From a virus: a stretch of 23,656 nt of DNA. Location: the IMG/VR virus record IMGVR_UViG_3300037882_005099, positions 1 to 23,656 of that record; one strand, 5' to 3'. The position numbers and the translations under genes were made by a program. Each line of letters begins with the position of its first letter. The first letter of the stretch is position 1. Below, one piece after another: positions 2,995-15,108 of this stretch. Under the pieces are notes generated by a model. It was not told the origin of the DNA, did not search any database, and was given only the letters and a program-made list of their open reading frames with translations.

Positions 2995-4214
2995 AGCAGG
3001 GCTCCTGTCGCGACGCCGCCGAGGGTGAAGGCGGGATCGGCTTTGCGGATGGGTTTGATGGTGATCAGGCGGCTGTCTGGCCGCATCGATTGCAGCTGCT
3101 GCTCAAAGGTCTGGCGCGGGGCCGGGGCGGCAGCGGCTGCCATGCGCTCTGCCATCTTTTCCTTTTCGAGAATCTGGCGCGCGGTCGCTGGATCGTGTTC
3201 CTCGAGCAGCTGCTTGTAGCGGTTTCGGTGCGCGAGCTTGTGCGGCATCCATCGCTTGGCGCGGGCAGCGGCCTTTCCGGCCTTGGTGGTATCGAAGATA
3301 GGGTCGGGCAGGCTTTGCCCTGCGGCCTCGAGACGGGCGCGCAGATCGTCGCGGATGCGGTAGCCGGACGTCTTGCCGATCCCGACAATCTCTGCCGCCT
3401 GGGCGACGGGCATGCGCTGCAACAGCAGCTGCTTGAGATGCTCCACCATTTCGGGACGGAGCCGCCGGAAATCATGCTTGGCGCGGCGGCGGACGCCATC
3501 GATATCGCAACCGGGCAGGCATTCGCCCTTGCGCGCCAATCGCTTGATCAAGCGATCGCGGATCCGCTTGCTGGTGGTGAGGCTGACGCCGGTGCGCTTT
3601 TTGATCGTGGCTGAGCCAAAGCCATCGAGATAGAGCTGTTCGACCTGGCGTTTCAGGGCCGGTGCGACGCGCGCGCCGCAATAGGCCTCGCCATTGCCGG
3701 GGGCTGGCAACGGAGCCTTGTCGCGCGCCTTGAGGTCGGCGGTGTAGCGGCGGCGCTCCTCGGCGACGCGGGCGGCGCTGATCCCCATGCGCAGCTGGAT
3801 TTCCTGCCCCTTGACGCCCTTGCGTAGAAACAGGCGCAGCCGTTCGATCTCGTGCGGGAGCAGGAAGCCGCGCGCGTCGCGTTCAGCAGGGCGATGCCCC
3901 TTGCGCGGGCACAGGGCGATCAGCACGGCATTGCATACGGCGGTTTCAGAAACGCCGAATTTCCGACCGATCCGCTCAAAGGACCAGCCGTGTTCTTCGC
4001 GCAGGACGATAGCCTGTTCGAGATCCTCGCCCATCAGCTTTGCCATTGGCGCGGGTGGCCGATGCGCGGTTTGCAAGCCGAGGCGATTGGCCTGGACATG
4101 GATCGCGTGTCGCGAGCGATCGAGCGCCACCGCCACTGGCGGCGCGCCCTGATCGGGATAATGGGCGCGGATATAGGCCAGCTCGGCCTCGGTCCATGGG
4201 CGGGCGCGGATCAT
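2991..4214 (-). CDS. Multi-helix-turn-helix DNA-binding protein (five predicted units)
   Basis: I do not recognise this 407-aa protein as a named family. It reads as a string of DNA-binding units. A SANT/Myb or GcrA-like module is at about 6-47 (RPWTEAELAYIRAHYP and QANRLGL). HTH-like segments lie near 76-101 (WSFERIGRKFGVSETAV), 133-156 (GQEIQLRMGISAARVAEE), 197-224 (SATIKKRTGVSLTTSKRIRD) and 265-292 (VAQAAEIVGIGKTSGYRI). A helical, Ala-rich segment (312-370) and a short tail follow. Cys232 and Cys236 sit between units four and five. It is joined by ATGA overlaps to DUF5131 upstream and the methyltransferase downstream. A role in regulation, in binding repeated DNA such as an origin or att region, or in packaging recognition is inference. 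Confidence 0.85.
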   Translation of the reverse strand: MIRARPWTEAELAYIRAHYPDQGAPPVAVALDRSRHAIHVQANRLGLQTAHRPPAPMAKLMGEDLEQAIVLREEHGWSFERIGRKFGVSETAVCNAVLIALCPRKGHRPAERDARGFLLPHEIERLRLFLRKGVKGQEIQLRMGISAARVAEERRRYTADLKARDKAPLPAPGNGEAYCGARVAPALKRQVEQLYLDGFGSATIKKRTGVSLTTSKRIRDRLIKRLARKGECLPGCDIDGVRRRAKHDFRRLRPEMVEHLKQLLLQRMPVAQAAEIVGIGKTSGYRIRDDLRARLEAAGQSLPDPIFDTTKAGKAAARAKRWMPHKLAHRNRYKQLLEEHDPATARQILEKEKMAERMAAAAAPAPRQTFEQQLQSMRPDSRLITIKPIRKADPAFTLGGVATGALL

Positions 4215-5290
4215 GACCGAGGCTCCGGTATGGCATCATGCAGAACGCCATCAAGCAGGCGACCTGCCTTTTTCTTGCCTATTCGATAGACGTCAGGCTC
4301 ATCGTCGCAGTGCCCATCAACCGCCGACCAATCATCGATCCAACGCCCATCAAAATATGTCTTTCCACGCGCCGCCTTGCATGGATCGAGATATTCTCCA
4401 GCGACTTCACCTGGTGCATAATTGCCCCACTGCTTGAAGTGGAACATGACGCCCGCCGCCGCGCACTGATCACGCAGCGACCGCGCCCAATCCGGGTGCA
4501 TCGGGCGGGCATCGGGGCCACTTTCGCCACCGCAGACCACCCAGTCGAGTTTTGCTGTATCCTTCATCATGCAAAGTACAGCGCCATCCCGCGTATGGCG
4601 GATCGGCCATGATGACCAGTTGCCTGTTAACGCTGAAAGGTGCCCATTCACCGGTATGGACAACCGGGTTAAATTCACCGGCCCCAGCAGCGGCTCTGCG
4701 CTGATCCAGCGCACTGCGGCAGGCGTGAACAGCAGATCGGGGATGCGTTTTTCGGCGGCTCGCTGATCCTCGACAGATACGCCCAGCCAGACGTTGGGGA
4801 AAGGTTGATAAGGGTCGCCACCAGCATCACTGCCGAAGCCATCAATCGCGCAGATTGCATCCTCTAGCATCATGATGCCATGCTCGCTTTCAAAGCGACT
4901 TGTGCAATACGCCTGCATCCGCACCGAACGCTTGGTCAGCACCTGAAACGTGTGTTGCGGGCACAGCGCCATCACCGCAAAAACGCGGTCGATCCATTCA
5001 TCGGGCACGTCTTCATGGAAGAGATCGGCATGCGCGCAGACGAAGATTGTGCGGGGCCGCTTCCAGCGGAACGGCTGTAAGAGCCACTTTTCGTTAAAGC
5101 GGACCTCGCCCGTCCATACCGGGCCAGCCTTGCTGCGTCGGGTCAGGCCGATGCGCGAGGGATCATGCTTTAGCCGGGTTCCGGCCAAGCGCATCGCGTA
5201 GCAATTGGTGCAGCCTGCGCTATGGACCGAACAGCCGGTGATGACGTTCCATGTCGCATCGGCCCATGAGATTTTGGTATGATCAGCCAT
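4211..5290 (-). CDS. DUF5131 / phage Gp37-Gp68 family protein with radical-SAM-like cysteine motif
   Basis: This 359-aa protein matches the family found in many phages and mobile elements. The hallmark start TKISWADATWNVITGC leads into Cys20, Cys27 and Cys30 (C-x6-C-x2-C), an iron-sulfur-like arrangement. Further conserved blocks are DLFHEDVP, QVLTKR, WLGVSVEDQ, WISAEPLLG, VVCGGESGPDARPMHPDWARSL and FKQWG. The family resembles radical SAM enzymes, but its reaction is not known to me. Elsewhere it is often paired with a 'three-Cys-motif partner' protein; I see none here. The gene overlaps the preceding one by 8 nt and runs into the multi-HTH gene by ATGA, so the three probably act in one expression unit. 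Confidence 0.92.
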   Translation of the reverse strand: MADHTKISWADATWNVITGCSVHSAGCTNCYAMRLAGTRLKHDPSRIGLTRRSKAGPVWTGEVRFNEKWLLQPFRWKRPRTIFVCAHADLFHEDVPDEWIDRVFAVMALCPQHTFQVLTKRSVRMQAYCTSRFESEHGIMMLEDAICAIDGFGSDAGGDPYQPFPNVWLGVSVEDQRAAEKRIPDLLFTPAAVRWISAEPLLGPVNLTRLSIPVNGHLSALTGNWSSWPIRHTRDGAVLCMMKDTAKLDWVVCGGESGPDARPMHPDWARSLRDQCAAAGVMFHFKQWGNYAPGEVAGEYLDPCKAARGKTYFDGRWIDDWSAVDGHCDDEPDVYRIGKKKAGRLLDGVLHDAIPEPRS

Positions 5291-12210: not shown

Positions 12211-12894
12211 ATGCTCATGAGTAATCCTTCGAGAATCAATGCTGATCGGTTGAAGGCCGAAATGGACCGGCACGGCTTTTCACAGTCGTCCTTGGCGCGC
12301 GTTATCGGGGTATCGCAGGCGACGATCGCCCGCCTTGCTACGGGCGCAGCTTTTGGGTCAACACACCTTCACCGCATCGCTCGCGAGTTGCAAACGACAC
12401 CCGCCTATCTGACTGGCGAAACCGATGATCCCAGTGAAGGGGCCTTGCCCGTACCGACTGCGCAAAGCATCGCGGCGCAGCTGGGCTCCGTGCTCATCCC
12501 GCAGCTCGATATCGGCTATTCTATGGGCGGCGGCAGCGTGTTCGAGGACTATGTGCAGCAGGCCGAAGTGGCGATGCCGCAAGACTGGCTGCGTCCGTTG
12601 ATCAAGGGCCGGTTTGACGAGCTGTTCGTCGCGCGGGGCGAAGGCGATTCGATGATGCCGACGCTGATGGATGGCGACCTGGTGGTGGTGGATACGGCGC
12701 AAAGGCAAATCAACAAGCAGGATCGGCTATGGTGCCTGAGCTATGGCGATCTGGGCATGATTAAGCGGGTGCGGAAATTGCCGACCGGCGGCTATGAAAT
12801 CATGAGCGATAATCCGACCGTGACCTCTATCACGGCCTATGATGACGAGATGCATGTAGTGGGTCGGGTGGTGTGGATCGGGCGTCGGGTTTAG
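12211..12894 (+). CDS. S24-type phage repressor (CI/LexA-like)
   Basis: This 227-aa protein would maintain lysogeny. An N-terminal HTH lies at about 22-46 (FSQSSLARVIGVSQATIARL). The C-terminal domain is peptidase S24-like, with Ser147 in GDSMMPTLMDGD and Lys185 in LGMIKRVRK as the expected catalytic pair, and the usual GRVVWIGR end. The linker (about 70-95) lacks an evident Ala-Gly or Cys-Gly cleavage pair, so induction by RecA-stimulated self-cleavage is not assured. The start may be ATG 12211 or 12217; neither has a strong Shine-Dalgarno. It is divergent from the early operon, with the operators between, and leads directly into accessory genes ten bases downstream. Confidence 0.92.
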   Translation: MLMSNPSRINADRLKAEMDRHGFSQSSLARVIGVSQATIARLATGAAFGSTHLHRIARELQTTPAYLTGETDDPSEGALPVPTAQSIAAQLGSVLIPQLDIGYSMGGGSVFEDYVQQAEVAMPQDWLRPLIKGRFDELFVARGEGDSMMPTLMDGDLVVVDTAQRQINKQDRLWCLSYGDLGMIKRVRKLPTGGYEIMSDNPTVTSITAYDDEMHVVGRVVWIGRRV

Positions 12895-12903
12895 GGGCAT
12901 GTA

Positions 12904-13557
12904 GTGGGAAGCAAAGCTGCGAAAATAGCGCTTTGGGTGATGGCCGGTTTTGGCGCACTGTTTTTCCTGCTGCTGATCGTCGCTGCTATTGTTGGCCCGG
13001 TTGCGCCACCGGAAACTTCGTCCGCCTCGACCAAAGCCACTGCCGCAAAAGTGGTGAAGCCTGCTCCTGCTGAAGACCAGAAGACTCGCGACGCACTGAT
13101 CGCCGTAATAAGAACGATCGCCGTTGATACCGTGTCATGCGCTGTGCACGCGGAAAAGGTCGTAAATCTTACCGGTGAGGCGTCCGGGGATCCCGACTTA
13201 GCAAAACAGGAAAAGGCAATTCTGGCCTATGCTGAGGCAGTCGAGGGCGAACCTCGTTGCCGGGAGATAGCTGAGAAAATCGGGAAGACCGACGCTCCCA
13301 CGTTATCGGATTCCGCCATGTTCAGCAATTTGGGTCTGGCAATTAGTGAGTGTCGCAAGGCATCGATAAAGCGCGCAGATGGCTTGGAAAGTGTGAAGGT
13401 CTTTTTCAACGGTGACCACAGTTCCGACAAAGCGATGGCGACTGCCGCGCTGTTTGTAGAAGCGCGAACGCTTCAAAAATCCTGCCTAGATACCTTGCAA
13501 TATGTTGGCCGCGAGAGCGGATTGGAGGCCGATGCCATGTCGTTTCTGAAACCATGA
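12904..13557 (+). CDS. N-terminally anchored periplasmic protein in the repressor operon
   Basis: The 217-aa protein starts at GTG 12904, with AGGGG seven bases upstream. A transmembrane helix at about 8-31 (IALWVMAGFGALFFLLLIVA) follows two lysines, and a Pro/Ala/Ser/Thr-rich linker (32-57) leads to a helical domain. Topology would be N-in with the domain in the periplasm. The domain has four cysteines (in VSCAVH, PRCREI, SECRKA and KSCLDT), which could form two disulfides. No family is recognised. It lies 9 nt after the repressor gene and overlaps the next gene by ATGA, so it is probably expressed in the lysogen. Confidence 0.78.
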   Translation: MGSKAAKIALWVMAGFGALFFLLLIVAAIVGPVAPPETSSASTKATAAKVVKPAPAEDQKTRDALIAVIRTIAVDTVSCAVHAEKVVNLTGEASGDPDLAKQEKAILAYAEAVEGEPRCREIAEKIGKTDAPTLSDSAMFSNLGLAISECRKASIKRADGLESVKVFFNGDHSSDKAMATAALFVEARTLQKSCLDTLQYVGRESGLEADAMSFLKP

Positions 13558-13847
13558 ATGACCAGCCCACCCGTCGCGGTTTTGTGCTGGGCGCGGCCAG
13601 CCTGTTGCTGGGCCTGACGCTGGCACCGGGGAGTGCCGAGGCGCGCCGCCGACGTAAATCATCGGGGAACAAAAAGCGCCGATCGAGCGGGGGTGGCTCG
13701 CGGAGCCGGAGCAGCAGCTCTGCGCCCAGTGGCGGCTTTCGCAATTGCGCCGAGGCGCGCGCAGCAGGCGCTGCGCCAGTGCGGTCTGGCGATAAGGGCT
13801 ATTCGCGCAGACTGGATCGTGATGGCGATGGAGTGGCCTGCGAATGA
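13554..13847 (+). CDS. Tat-exported Excalibur-domain calcium-binding protein
   Basis: Residues 5-30 form a twin-arginine signal (PTRRGFVLGAASLLLG, ending at SAEA), so the 97-aa protein is probably exported folded. Residues 31-56 are a strongly basic Arg/Lys/Ser/Gly linker. The C-terminal 36 residues are an Excalibur domain: FRNCAEARAAG, then LDRDGDGVACE, with Asp88, Asp90 and Asp92 as calcium ligands and Cys65 and Cys96 able to pair. The basic linker could bind DNA, lipid A or peptidoglycan. It is coupled by ATGA to the gene before and to the SNase-like nuclease after, which suggests joint action outside the cytoplasm. Confidence 0.85.
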   Translation: MNDQPTRRGFVLGAASLLLGLTLAPGSAEARRRRKSSGNKKRRSSGGGSRSRSSSSAPSGGFRNCAEARAAGAAPVRSGDKGYSRRLDRDGDGVACE

Positions 13848-14275
13848 TTCTGACAGCCTTGTTGGGTGTGGCAATTGTGGCCGAGGGCGAGAGCTTTGCC
13901 TGTACGCCGGTGCGCGTGTGGGATGGCGATGGCCCGATCTGGTGCGCGGAAGGGCCGCGCATCCGCCTTTCTGGCATTGCGGCGCGCGAGATCGACGATA
14001 GCTGCAAGGGCGAGCAGCCCTGCCCCAAGACCAGCGGGCCAGACGCACGGGATGCGCTGGCGCGCCTGATCGGGACGATCACCGGGCGATCCAGCGAAGG
14101 GCATTTGTTGATCAAGGGGCCGACGATGCGATGCGTATCGGTGGGCGGGGCCGGGGGCAGTCGTACCGCCGCCTGGTGTGTATCGCCCAAGGCAGGCGAT
14201 GTGAGCTGCGCCGCGGTGAAGGCGGGATTTGCCTTGCGATGGGATCGGTATTGGAAGGGGCACAAATGTCGTTGA
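13844..14275 (+). CDS. Secreted SNase-like (thermonuclease family) protein
   Basis: This 143-aa protein has a short N-terminal signal (about 1-19, ending ESFA) and an SNase-like fold pattern: VRVWDGDGPIW (Asp27, Asp29), RIRLSGIAAREID (Arg41, Glu49) and GSRTAAWC (Arg107). By my alignment with staphylococcal nuclease, Arg35, Glu43 and Arg87 are retained, while calcium ligand Asp40 is replaced by alanine. Eight cysteines indicate disulfides and a periplasmic or secreted location. If active it would cut DNA or RNA outside the cytoplasm. The start overlaps the Excalibur gene by ATGA. A binding-only role cannot be excluded given the lost ligand. Confidence 0.78.
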   Translation: MILTALLGVAIVAEGESFACTPVRVWDGDGPIWCAEGPRIRLSGIAAREIDDSCKGEQPCPKTSGPDARDALARLIGTITGRSSEGHLLIKGPTMRCVSVGGAGGSRTAAWCVSPKAGDVSCAAVKAGFALRWDRYWKGHKCR

Positions 14276-14370
14276 GGATCGAGGCGGCAGTGCTGGGCCT
14301 GTTGATGCTGGCGGCTTATGCGGAGATGATCCGGGGGGCGGTGCGGGTGGTAATCGGGTTAGGCGGGTAG
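14266..14370 (+). CDS. 34-aa membrane peptide
   Basis: An ATG at 14266 lies inside the end of the SNase-like gene in another frame, preceded by GGAAGGGG at a good spacing of five bases. The peptide begins MSLRIEAAVLGLLMLAAYAE and has one short hydrophobic span, then a basic and hydrophobic tail. The strong ribosome site and the overlap style of this operon support it. Function is unknown. Confidence 0.5.
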   Translation: MSLRIEAAVLGLLMLAAYAEMIRGAVRVVIGLGG

Positions 14371-14467: not shown

Positions 14468-14788
14468 ATGGACGGAACGCATGTAGCTGGTGAAGTCGTT
14501 ACAGCAGGAACGGCGCTTGCTGGTTTTATTCTCATTTATATTGCTAGCTTAGTCACAGGCTATGGTGGTTATCAGCCGCAAGAACAGAAGAGGGTCATTA
14601 TCGGATTTTTGTCGCGCGCATGGATCGCATTTGTAGGAATGGTGATGGCGCTATTAGCCACAGCCCTATCAATTATTGGGAAGTGGGAAGGCAATGTCTG
14701 CGCCGCGAATGTAGCCGTCTGGCTACTAATAGCGGCATTTGCATGGGCGGTGTTGACGACCGTGCTCATAATAAGGGAGATAAAATGA
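14468..14788 (+). CDS. Three-helix membrane protein of the A+T-richer cassette
   Basis: The 106-aa protein has three hydrophobic segments: about 13-34 (GTALAGFILIYIASLV), 50-70 (AWIAFVGMVMALLATALSII) and 79-101 (AVWLLIAAFAWAVLTTVLII). A basic loop with QEQKRV lies between the first two. It is an integral inner-membrane protein with no recognised family. GGGAG four bases before the ATG is a good ribosome site. The stop is inside the ATGA that starts the next gene, and base composition is lower in G+C than in the flanking phage genes, which suggests recent acquisition. Confidence 0.75.
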   Translation: MDGTHVAGEVVTAGTALAGFILIYIASLVTGYGGYQPQEQKRVIIGFLSRAWIAFVGMVMALLATALSIIGKWEGNVCAANVAVWLLIAAFAWAVLTTVLIIREIK

Positions 14789-15108
14789 TGGCCCTTACCC
14801 TGGAGGCTGAACAGCGCCTAGACGATGTTGGCGTGACGGCATTTTATGACGACGATGCAGATGTCTGGCTCGCCACTGTCCGCGCAACAAAAAATTTTGT
14901 GTCAGGGAACTTCCCAGCTCACTCACGGATTCGTAGAGACGATGTAGCGAAGGCGCTTGTGCCTATCCTTGAGGTCCACGAAGGTTTTAAGGATTTTCGA
15001 GCCGAAAATAAACTTCGCGGAAAATTTTGGGTAAAAGACTTTGCTGATCTGCTGATCGACAAAACTTGGGACACACTGGAGCAGGAGGACAACCATGGCG
15101 AAGAATGA
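14785..15108 (+). CDS. 107-aa soluble protein of the A+T-richer cassette
   Basis: The start is ATG 14785 (MMALTLEAEQRLDDVG), coupled by ATGA and preceded by AAGGGAG. The protein is acidic at the N-terminus (YDDDADVW) and mixed in structure, with KNFVSGNFPAHSRIRRDDVA followed by a second half rich in Lys, Phe and Asp. It has no signal or membrane span. I do not recognise a family. Being tied to a membrane protein upstream and a 49-aa protein downstream, it probably works with them. Confidence 0.72.
   Translation: MMALTLEAEQRLDDVGVTAFYDDDADVWLATVRATKNFVSGNFPAHSRIRRDDVAKALVPILEVHEGFKDFRAENKLRGKFWVKDFADLLIDKTWDTLEQEDNHGEE

What the first reader, a model, noticed from the sequence alone, without database searches (positions are those of the whole stretch)
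12904..14370. Repressor-linked exported module: anchored protein, Tat Excalibur protein, SNase-like nuclease and membrane peptide
Directly after the repressor, where lambda carries rexAB, four overlapping genes all encode products destined for the membrane or beyond it. An Excalibur domain and an SNase-like domain, which I recall as fused in some secreted nucleases, appear here as separate neighbours with different export signals. A lysogen-expressed periplasmic nuclease complex could degrade incoming phage DNA or alter the cell surface.
Basis: inference. Interest (0 to 1): 0.68.

Follow-up and report, generated by a model that had tools for sequence, protein, structure and literature searches.

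The report
Prophage-borne exported split nuclease cassette
Next to its repressor gene, this bacterial virus carries a small set of genes for a DNA-cutting-type protein and its partners that are sent out to the cell envelope; the same nuclease gene rides on unrelated viruses, plasmids and conjugative elements of the same bacteria, which suggests a shared way to destroy foreign DNA on its way into the cell.

Summary
Directly after the S24 repressor of a P2-like sphingomonad phage (9-bp gap) come four overlapping co-directional genes: a membrane-anchored four-helix-bundle protein, a Tat-type Excalibur protein, an exported SNase-fold protein (SNaseL) and a 34-aa membrane peptide. SNaseL is unseen by Pfam, but its model (pLDDT 91) matches staphylococcal nuclease at Z 11.8. 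It keeps the equivalents of D21, R35, E43 and R87; D40 is Ala.

The link between parts is not chance. In 80 bacterial SNaseL loci, 25 Excalibur genes lie within 1.5 kb, all same-strand (5 in the other 716 kb, none in 280 kb of control DNA). The membrane peptide recurs at SNaseL 3' ends and is fused to Excalibur in eight genomes. The same slot holds canonical SNase plus Excalibur in distant relatives. SNaseL also rides alone in siphophages, downstream of traG in conjugative elements, and on 56 plasmids.

Best reading: a split version of SPbeta YokF (SNase-Excalibur lipoprotein that lowers transformation), forming an envelope DNA barrier carried by mobile elements. Its target (transforming, phage or conjugating DNA) and its activity without D40 are untested. 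New variant of a known kind.

The parts
12211..12894 (+). S24/CI-type repressor (HTH + peptidase S24), 227 aa, likely head of the transcription unit
   Evidence: Pfam Peptidase_S24 1.9e-16, HTH_3 5e-8; phrog_4 transcriptional repressor 1.4e-42
12904..13557 (+). membrane-anchored 217-aa protein: one N-terminal TM helix, disordered linker, periplasmic four-helix bundle with four invariant Cys
   Evidence: homologs at the same place in L045, L060, L123-L126; model pLDDT 79, helices 59-204; resembles chemoreceptor ligand-binding bundles, Z 12.5, within the range of chance for helical bundles
13554..13847 (+). Tat-type exported Excalibur protein, 97 aa, basic linker (net +11)
   Evidence: PF05901 7.9e-18; sequence; same type in L075 of a related phage
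13844..14275 (+). SNaseL: exported SNase-fold protein, 143 aa, 8 Cys
   Evidence: phrog_18798 (unknown function) 3e-40; structure model and fold match; 38-row alignment; alignment to canonical SNases
14266..14370 (+). 34-aa single-pass membrane microprotein overlapping the 3' end of SNaseL
   Evidence: recurrent at SNaseL 3' ends and fused to Excalibur in other genomes
14468..14788 (+). 106-aa multi-TM protein, co-directional, role in the cassette unknown
   Evidence: ORF; only weak holin-like match E 0.053
14791..15108 (+). 105-aa soluble protein, no family match
   Evidence: internal start of the 162-aa ORF; no Pfam match

Best explanation
This is a lysogeny-linked cargo cassette in a P2-like phage of sphingomonads. 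It encodes an envelope-located, membrane-tethered DNA-degrading complex: an exported SNase-fold protein, an Excalibur partner and a single-pass membrane microprotein that tethers them, with an anchored helical-bundle protein placed next to the repressor. It works like a split form of the SNase-Excalibur lipoprotein YokF of prophage SPbeta. Co-transcribed with the repressor in the lysogen, it would cut exogenous double-stranded DNA in the periplasm before it crosses the inner membrane, so blocking transformation and other DNA entry that could remove or compete with the resident element. Shown here: gene set, overlaps, export signals, fold, most catalytic residues, non-random association of the parts, carriage by several unrelated kinds of mobile element. 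Inferred: co-expression with the repressor, physical complex, catalytic activity, the DNA-barrier role and its target.
For: Fold Z 11.8 to staphylococcal nuclease with D21/R35/E43/R87 equivalents kept. Export: Tat signal on Excalibur; relatives of SNaseL with clear signal peptides or a lipobox; 8 Cys in 104 of 120 members. Association: 25 Excalibur genes in 260 kb around SNaseL, all same strand, against 5 in 716 kb and 0 in 280 kb control. TM ORF at the 3' end 23/71 vs 7/169, p about 1e-8, fused to Excalibur in L195, L196, L203, L214, L216, L220, L227, L237. Same slot in other P2-like phages holds Excalibur and SNase: L054, L133 with the same ATGA overlap, L102/L103 nearby with canonical SNase. 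First gene after the repressor is exported or membrane in 15/25 relatives against 47/236 control genes, p 5e-5. SNaseL on siphophages as a lone inverted gene between terminase and ParB/methyltransferase genes, downstream of TraH/TraG, on 56 plasmids, 31 of them conjugative. At least three separate places of P2-type members in the tree. YokF = SNase + Excalibur lipoprotein on SPbeta, reported to lower transformation about tenfold (PMC4774983). 19 of 20 SNaseL genomes tested encode ComEC.
Against: The D40 calcium ligand of staphylococcal nuclease is Ala throughout, so activity may be weak or need another metal site. No Pfam SNase match. Most SNaseL copies, all siphophage ones included, lack a neighbouring Excalibur, so Excalibur is not obligatory. 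Natural transformation of sphingomonads is not shown here. No expression data. PADLOC gave no convincing defence match to the cassette, and known defence genes near SNaseL were not clearly above control.
Confidence: 0.45

Rival explanations
1. Superinfection exclusion: the complex sits at the inner membrane and cuts or blocks phage DNA during injection, a periplasmic counterpart of SNIPE or of membrane moron proteins such as HK97 gp15.
For: Phage-borne, repressor-linked, membrane-tethered nuclease fold; lone inverted copies in siphophages in the manner of morons; SNIPE shows that a membrane nuclease can cut DNA during injection (PMC13190303).
Against: Also on plasmids and conjugative elements; no specificity element for phage recognised; SNIPE acts on the cytoplasmic side with a GIY-YIG domain; no convincing PADLOC match.
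Confidence: 0.25
2. Extracellular or periplasmic DNA scavenging or biofilm loosening: a host-benefit cargo that feeds the lysogen or alters its surface, without a barrier role.
For: YokF and related surface nucleases also support growth on external DNA (PMC3929857); SNaseL-Excalibur pairs exist on chromosomes outside recognised mobile elements.
Against: Repeated carriage by several classes of mobile element and placement next to the repressor fit an element-centred role better.
Confidence: 0.15
3. SNaseL is a catalytically dead SNase fold that binds DNA or protein, for example as an exclusion or surface protein at the mating or injection site, and does not cut.
For: D40 equivalent is Ala in all viral members, a set not selected on that motif; the genome set was selected on GIAARE and cannot count; a copy lies downstream of traG in conjugative elements, the region where F carries traS/traT (general knowledge).
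Against: D21, R35, E43 and R87 equivalents stay under strong constraint; invariant Asp51 two residues after the Glu might replace the ligand (inference).
Confidence: 0.15

Closest known systems
YokF of Bacillus prophage SPbeta (SNase-Excalibur lipoprotein nuclease)
   Same: prophage-borne, exported, membrane-attached, SNase fold plus Excalibur; reported to lower transformation (PMC4774983)
   Different: one polypeptide with a lipid anchor and canonical SNase domain; here separate genes, Tat-exported Excalibur, a membrane microprotein, D40 lost, Gram-negative host
DNases of mobile elements that inhibit natural transformation (Campylobacter CJIE1 Dns, CJIE2/CJIE4 nucleases, Vibrio ICE IdeA)
   Same: nuclease cargo of prophages and integrative elements that lowers transformation (PMC4774983)
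   Different: homology of those nucleases to SNaseL was not tested here; an Excalibur partner is not described for them in that paper
SNIPE membrane nuclease
   Same: membrane-located nuclease acting on DNA during entry
   Different: DUF4041 plus GIY-YIG domain facing the cytoplasm (PMC13190303); no shared domain seen
phrog_18798
   Same: SNaseL matches this PHROG over nearly its whole length, 3e-40
   Different: the family carries no function; the fold, partner genes and spread over plasmids and conjugative elements are not recorded there

Membership tests
Staphylococcal nuclease family (PF00565) | SNase OB fold | tested here: met
   VIA Z 11.8, rmsd 2.7, 104 aligned; Foldseek alone gave only weak SND1 matches, best E 0.016
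Staphylococcal nuclease family (PF00565) | match to the Pfam model | tested here: not met
   no hit at E<=1 for SNaseL, although proteins of the same slot in related phages do match
Staphylococcal nuclease family (PF00565) | catalytic R35, E43, R87 and ligand D21 | tested here: met
   D29, R41, E49, R107 aligned to canonical SNases; D21 equivalent 120/120, R35 and E43 in 116 of 116 readable, R87 in 104 of 104 readable
Staphylococcal nuclease family (PF00565) | ligand D40 | tested here: not met
   Ala46 at that place
Staphylococcal nuclease family (PF00565) | metal-dependent nuclease activity | not testable with these tools
   needs purified protein
YokF-type SNase-Excalibur nuclease | SNase and Excalibur in one chain | tested here: not met
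   separate overlapping genes; YokF has both in one chain
YokF-type SNase-Excalibur nuclease | lipoprotein anchor | tested here: not met
   Tat signal on Excalibur and short hydrophobic start on SNaseL; a relative, L229, has a lipobox
YokF-type SNase-Excalibur nuclease | carried by a prophage | tested here: met
   temperate-phage gene content around it
Prophage moron or lysogenic-conversion cargo | extra genes, opposite to flanking lytic genes, variable between relatives | tested here: met
   + strand block before - strand gpD; slot content differs in nearly every relative
Prophage moron or lysogenic-conversion cargo | expressed in the lysogen | not testable with these tools
   only inferred from the 9-bp gap to the repressor gene and absence of a + strand terminator-like site before 14502
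SNIPE | DUF4041 and GIY-YIG domains | tested here: not met
   no such match in any product
F-type entry or surface exclusion (TraS/TraT) | sequence relation to TraS or TraT | not tested
   only the position downstream of TraG_N genes was seen

The most novel reading that the evidence does not exclude
SNaseL with its Excalibur and membrane-microprotein partners is a common DNA-entry exclusion module of sphingomonads, shared by temperate phages, conjugative plasmids and conjugative chromosomal elements, that destroys any incoming DNA in the periplasm: an outward-facing counterpart of SNIPE, built from three small proteins.
Probability: 0.25. Interest if true: 0.75.

Novelty: new variant of a known kind. 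Interest (0 to 1): 0.52.

Why it matters
A nuclease-fold family labelled hypothetical or unknown, with hundreds of copies in sphingomonads, appears on phages of two architectures, plasmids and conjugative elements, with partners that can be predicted from gene order and fusion. If it is an envelope DNA barrier, it would explain part of how mobile elements of these bacteria keep rivals and curing DNA out, and it gives a simple test set for the idea that mobile elements block DNA uptake.

Tried and rejected
Pfam and PADLOC for the four products: only Excalibur recognised. Sequence search of solved structures with the SNaseL profile: nothing meaningful. Foldseek alone: weak SND1 matches, best E 0.016. 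Viral-contig scan with the 217-aa protein: no relatives found by its patterns; relatives came from the slot comparison instead. SNaseL in named phage records: none. Defence-island reading: neighbours of SNaseL include Hachiman HamA (L230), Septu PtuA, a methyltransferase, an E2 and a Shedu domain, but 115 control proteins from the same genomes also gave many PADLOC matches, largely Cas3-type helicase and RtcR-type ATPase models, so no enrichment is claimed. The lambda rexAB analogy is positional only. Papers on a prophage SNase with superinfection exclusion: none found. In the siphophages SNaseL is alone, so the four-gene set is not a fixed unit; only Excalibur and the microprotein show a significant link to SNaseL. 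The anchored protein is tied to the repressor rather than to SNaseL (in L123-L126 it occurs without SNaseL). The membrane microprotein has no detectable sequence match by tblastn; the claim rests on position, hydropathy and fusions.

Full report
What the window is. The window is a complete virus record of 23,656 bases, probably a fragment of a genome. Its genes are those of a P2-like temperate myophage: integrase, primase, Ogr, CII-like and Cro-like regulators, an S24 repressor, gpD, gpU, tape measure, gpE, head closure and sheath. Relatives of its cargo come from Sphingomonadales and some Rhodobacterales.

The observation. Four + strand genes follow the repressor with a 9-bp gap and overlaps of 4, 4 and 10 bp. 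The first (217 aa) has one TM helix and a periplasmic four-helix bundle with four invariant Cys. The second (97 aa) has a twin-arginine signal, a strongly basic linker and an Excalibur domain (7.9e-18). The third (143 aa, SNaseL) has no Pfam match; it belongs to phrog_18798, function unknown. The fourth is a 34-aa membrane peptide. Two more + strand genes follow before the opposing tail gene gpD.

Is the third gene an SNase? The model from 38 family members has mean pLDDT 91. Foldseek's matches were weak, but structural re-alignment of its candidates gives staphylococcal nuclease at the top, Z 11.8, 104 residues, rmsd 2.7. Aligned to proteins from related phages that do match PF00565, SNaseL keeps the equivalents of D21, R35, E43 and R87 and has Ala in place of D40. 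In the viral set, which was not selected on that motif, the Ala is constant; the genome set was fetched with a pattern containing GIAARE and cannot be used for that point. Eight cysteines in 104 of 120 members, and relatives with clear signal peptides or a lipobox, support export.

Is the grouping more than chance? Three tests. First, in 80 bacterial SNaseL loci, 25 Excalibur genes lie within 1.5 kb (260 kb in all), all on the same strand; the remaining 716 kb holds 5, and 280 kb of control DNA from the same genomes holds none. Second, an ORF with a TM segment starts at the 3' end of SNaseL in 23 of 71 non-phage loci against 7 of 169 control genes, and as a short peptide in 12 against 1; in eight genomes this TM segment is fused to an Excalibur domain. 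L188 (Novosphingobium indicum) has the same order as the window: Excalibur, SNaseL, 41-aa TM peptide. Third, the slot between repressor and gpD is variable in P2-like relatives, yet in L054, L133 and L102/L103 it again holds Excalibur and an SNase (in L133 with the same ATGA overlap and a canonical active site). The first gene after the repressor is exported or membrane-bound in 15 of 25 relatives against 47 of 236 control genes.

Where else the nuclease occurs. In most viral relatives SNaseL is a lone gene, inverted with respect to the late genes, between the small terminase and ParB/methyltransferase genes of siphophages. In bacterial genomes six loci have it downstream of TraG-type genes; TraG_N was confirmed by Pfam in one and TraH in another. 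It lies on 56 sphingomonad plasmids, 31 typed conjugative, near partition, SSB and AbiEii genes in those read. A tree puts P2-type phage copies in at least three places next to chromosomal or plasmid copies (few columns, rough support). This is cargo taken up repeatedly.

Mechanism. The closest characterised protein is YokF of SPbeta, which I checked here: SNase 9.5e-33 and Excalibur 9.4e-14 in one putative lipoprotein. A paper on conflict between mobile elements and transformation states that YokF lowers transformation about tenfold and lists DNases of other prophages and ICEs with stronger effects (PMC4774983). The window's cassette looks like YokF in pieces: nuclease fold, Excalibur, and a membrane tether. 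The simplest reading is an envelope DNA barrier made in the lysogen. 19 of 20 SNaseL genomes encode ComEC, so DNA uptake is at least possible. Superinfection exclusion in the style of SNIPE (PMC13190303) is the main rival; DNA scavenging and a non-cutting role are others. Shown: genes, fold, residues, export signals, association, distribution. Inferred: lysogenic expression, complex, cutting, target.

Novelty. Nuclease cargo of mobile elements is known, and so is the SNase-Excalibur pairing. What is new is the split form with a membrane microprotein, the unrecognised SNase-fold family with a changed metal site, its spread over several kinds of mobile element in one bacterial order, and its place beside the repressor.

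Noticed in passing
window 4211-5290 (-): phrog_2045 protein (3e-110); a distant relative (36%) sits upstream of SNaseL in three related loci L235, L236, L239.
   Followed up: no
L015, L016: SNaseL copies of two siphophage contigs carry an in-frame stop, so the gene can be lost.
   Followed up: no
L123, L125, L126: The repressor-linked anchored protein has an extra N-terminal zinc-ribbon-like region before the TM helix (weak Pfam matches for L126).
   Followed up: partly
L075:4968-5993, L054:5067-5672: Other cargo of the same slot: a HIRAN-domain protein, and membrane-anchored tRNA_anti-like proteins, one with SHOCT.
   Followed up: partly
L230:8333-12012: Hachiman-type HamA and a DEAD helicase directly downstream of SNaseL and Excalibur, behind a TraG-type gene.
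   Followed up: no
L202:7617-13742: 2041-aa protein with double-PIN-associated HTH and TPR-GreAB-C-PIN matches beside an Excalibur-SNaseL pair.
   Followed up: no
bacterial Excalibur partners, e.g. L188, L196, L231: Most chromosomal Excalibur partners carry a conserved HGG...GCHNDRKNGGRHCH stretch before the Excalibur domain that the phage copy lacks.
   Followed up: no
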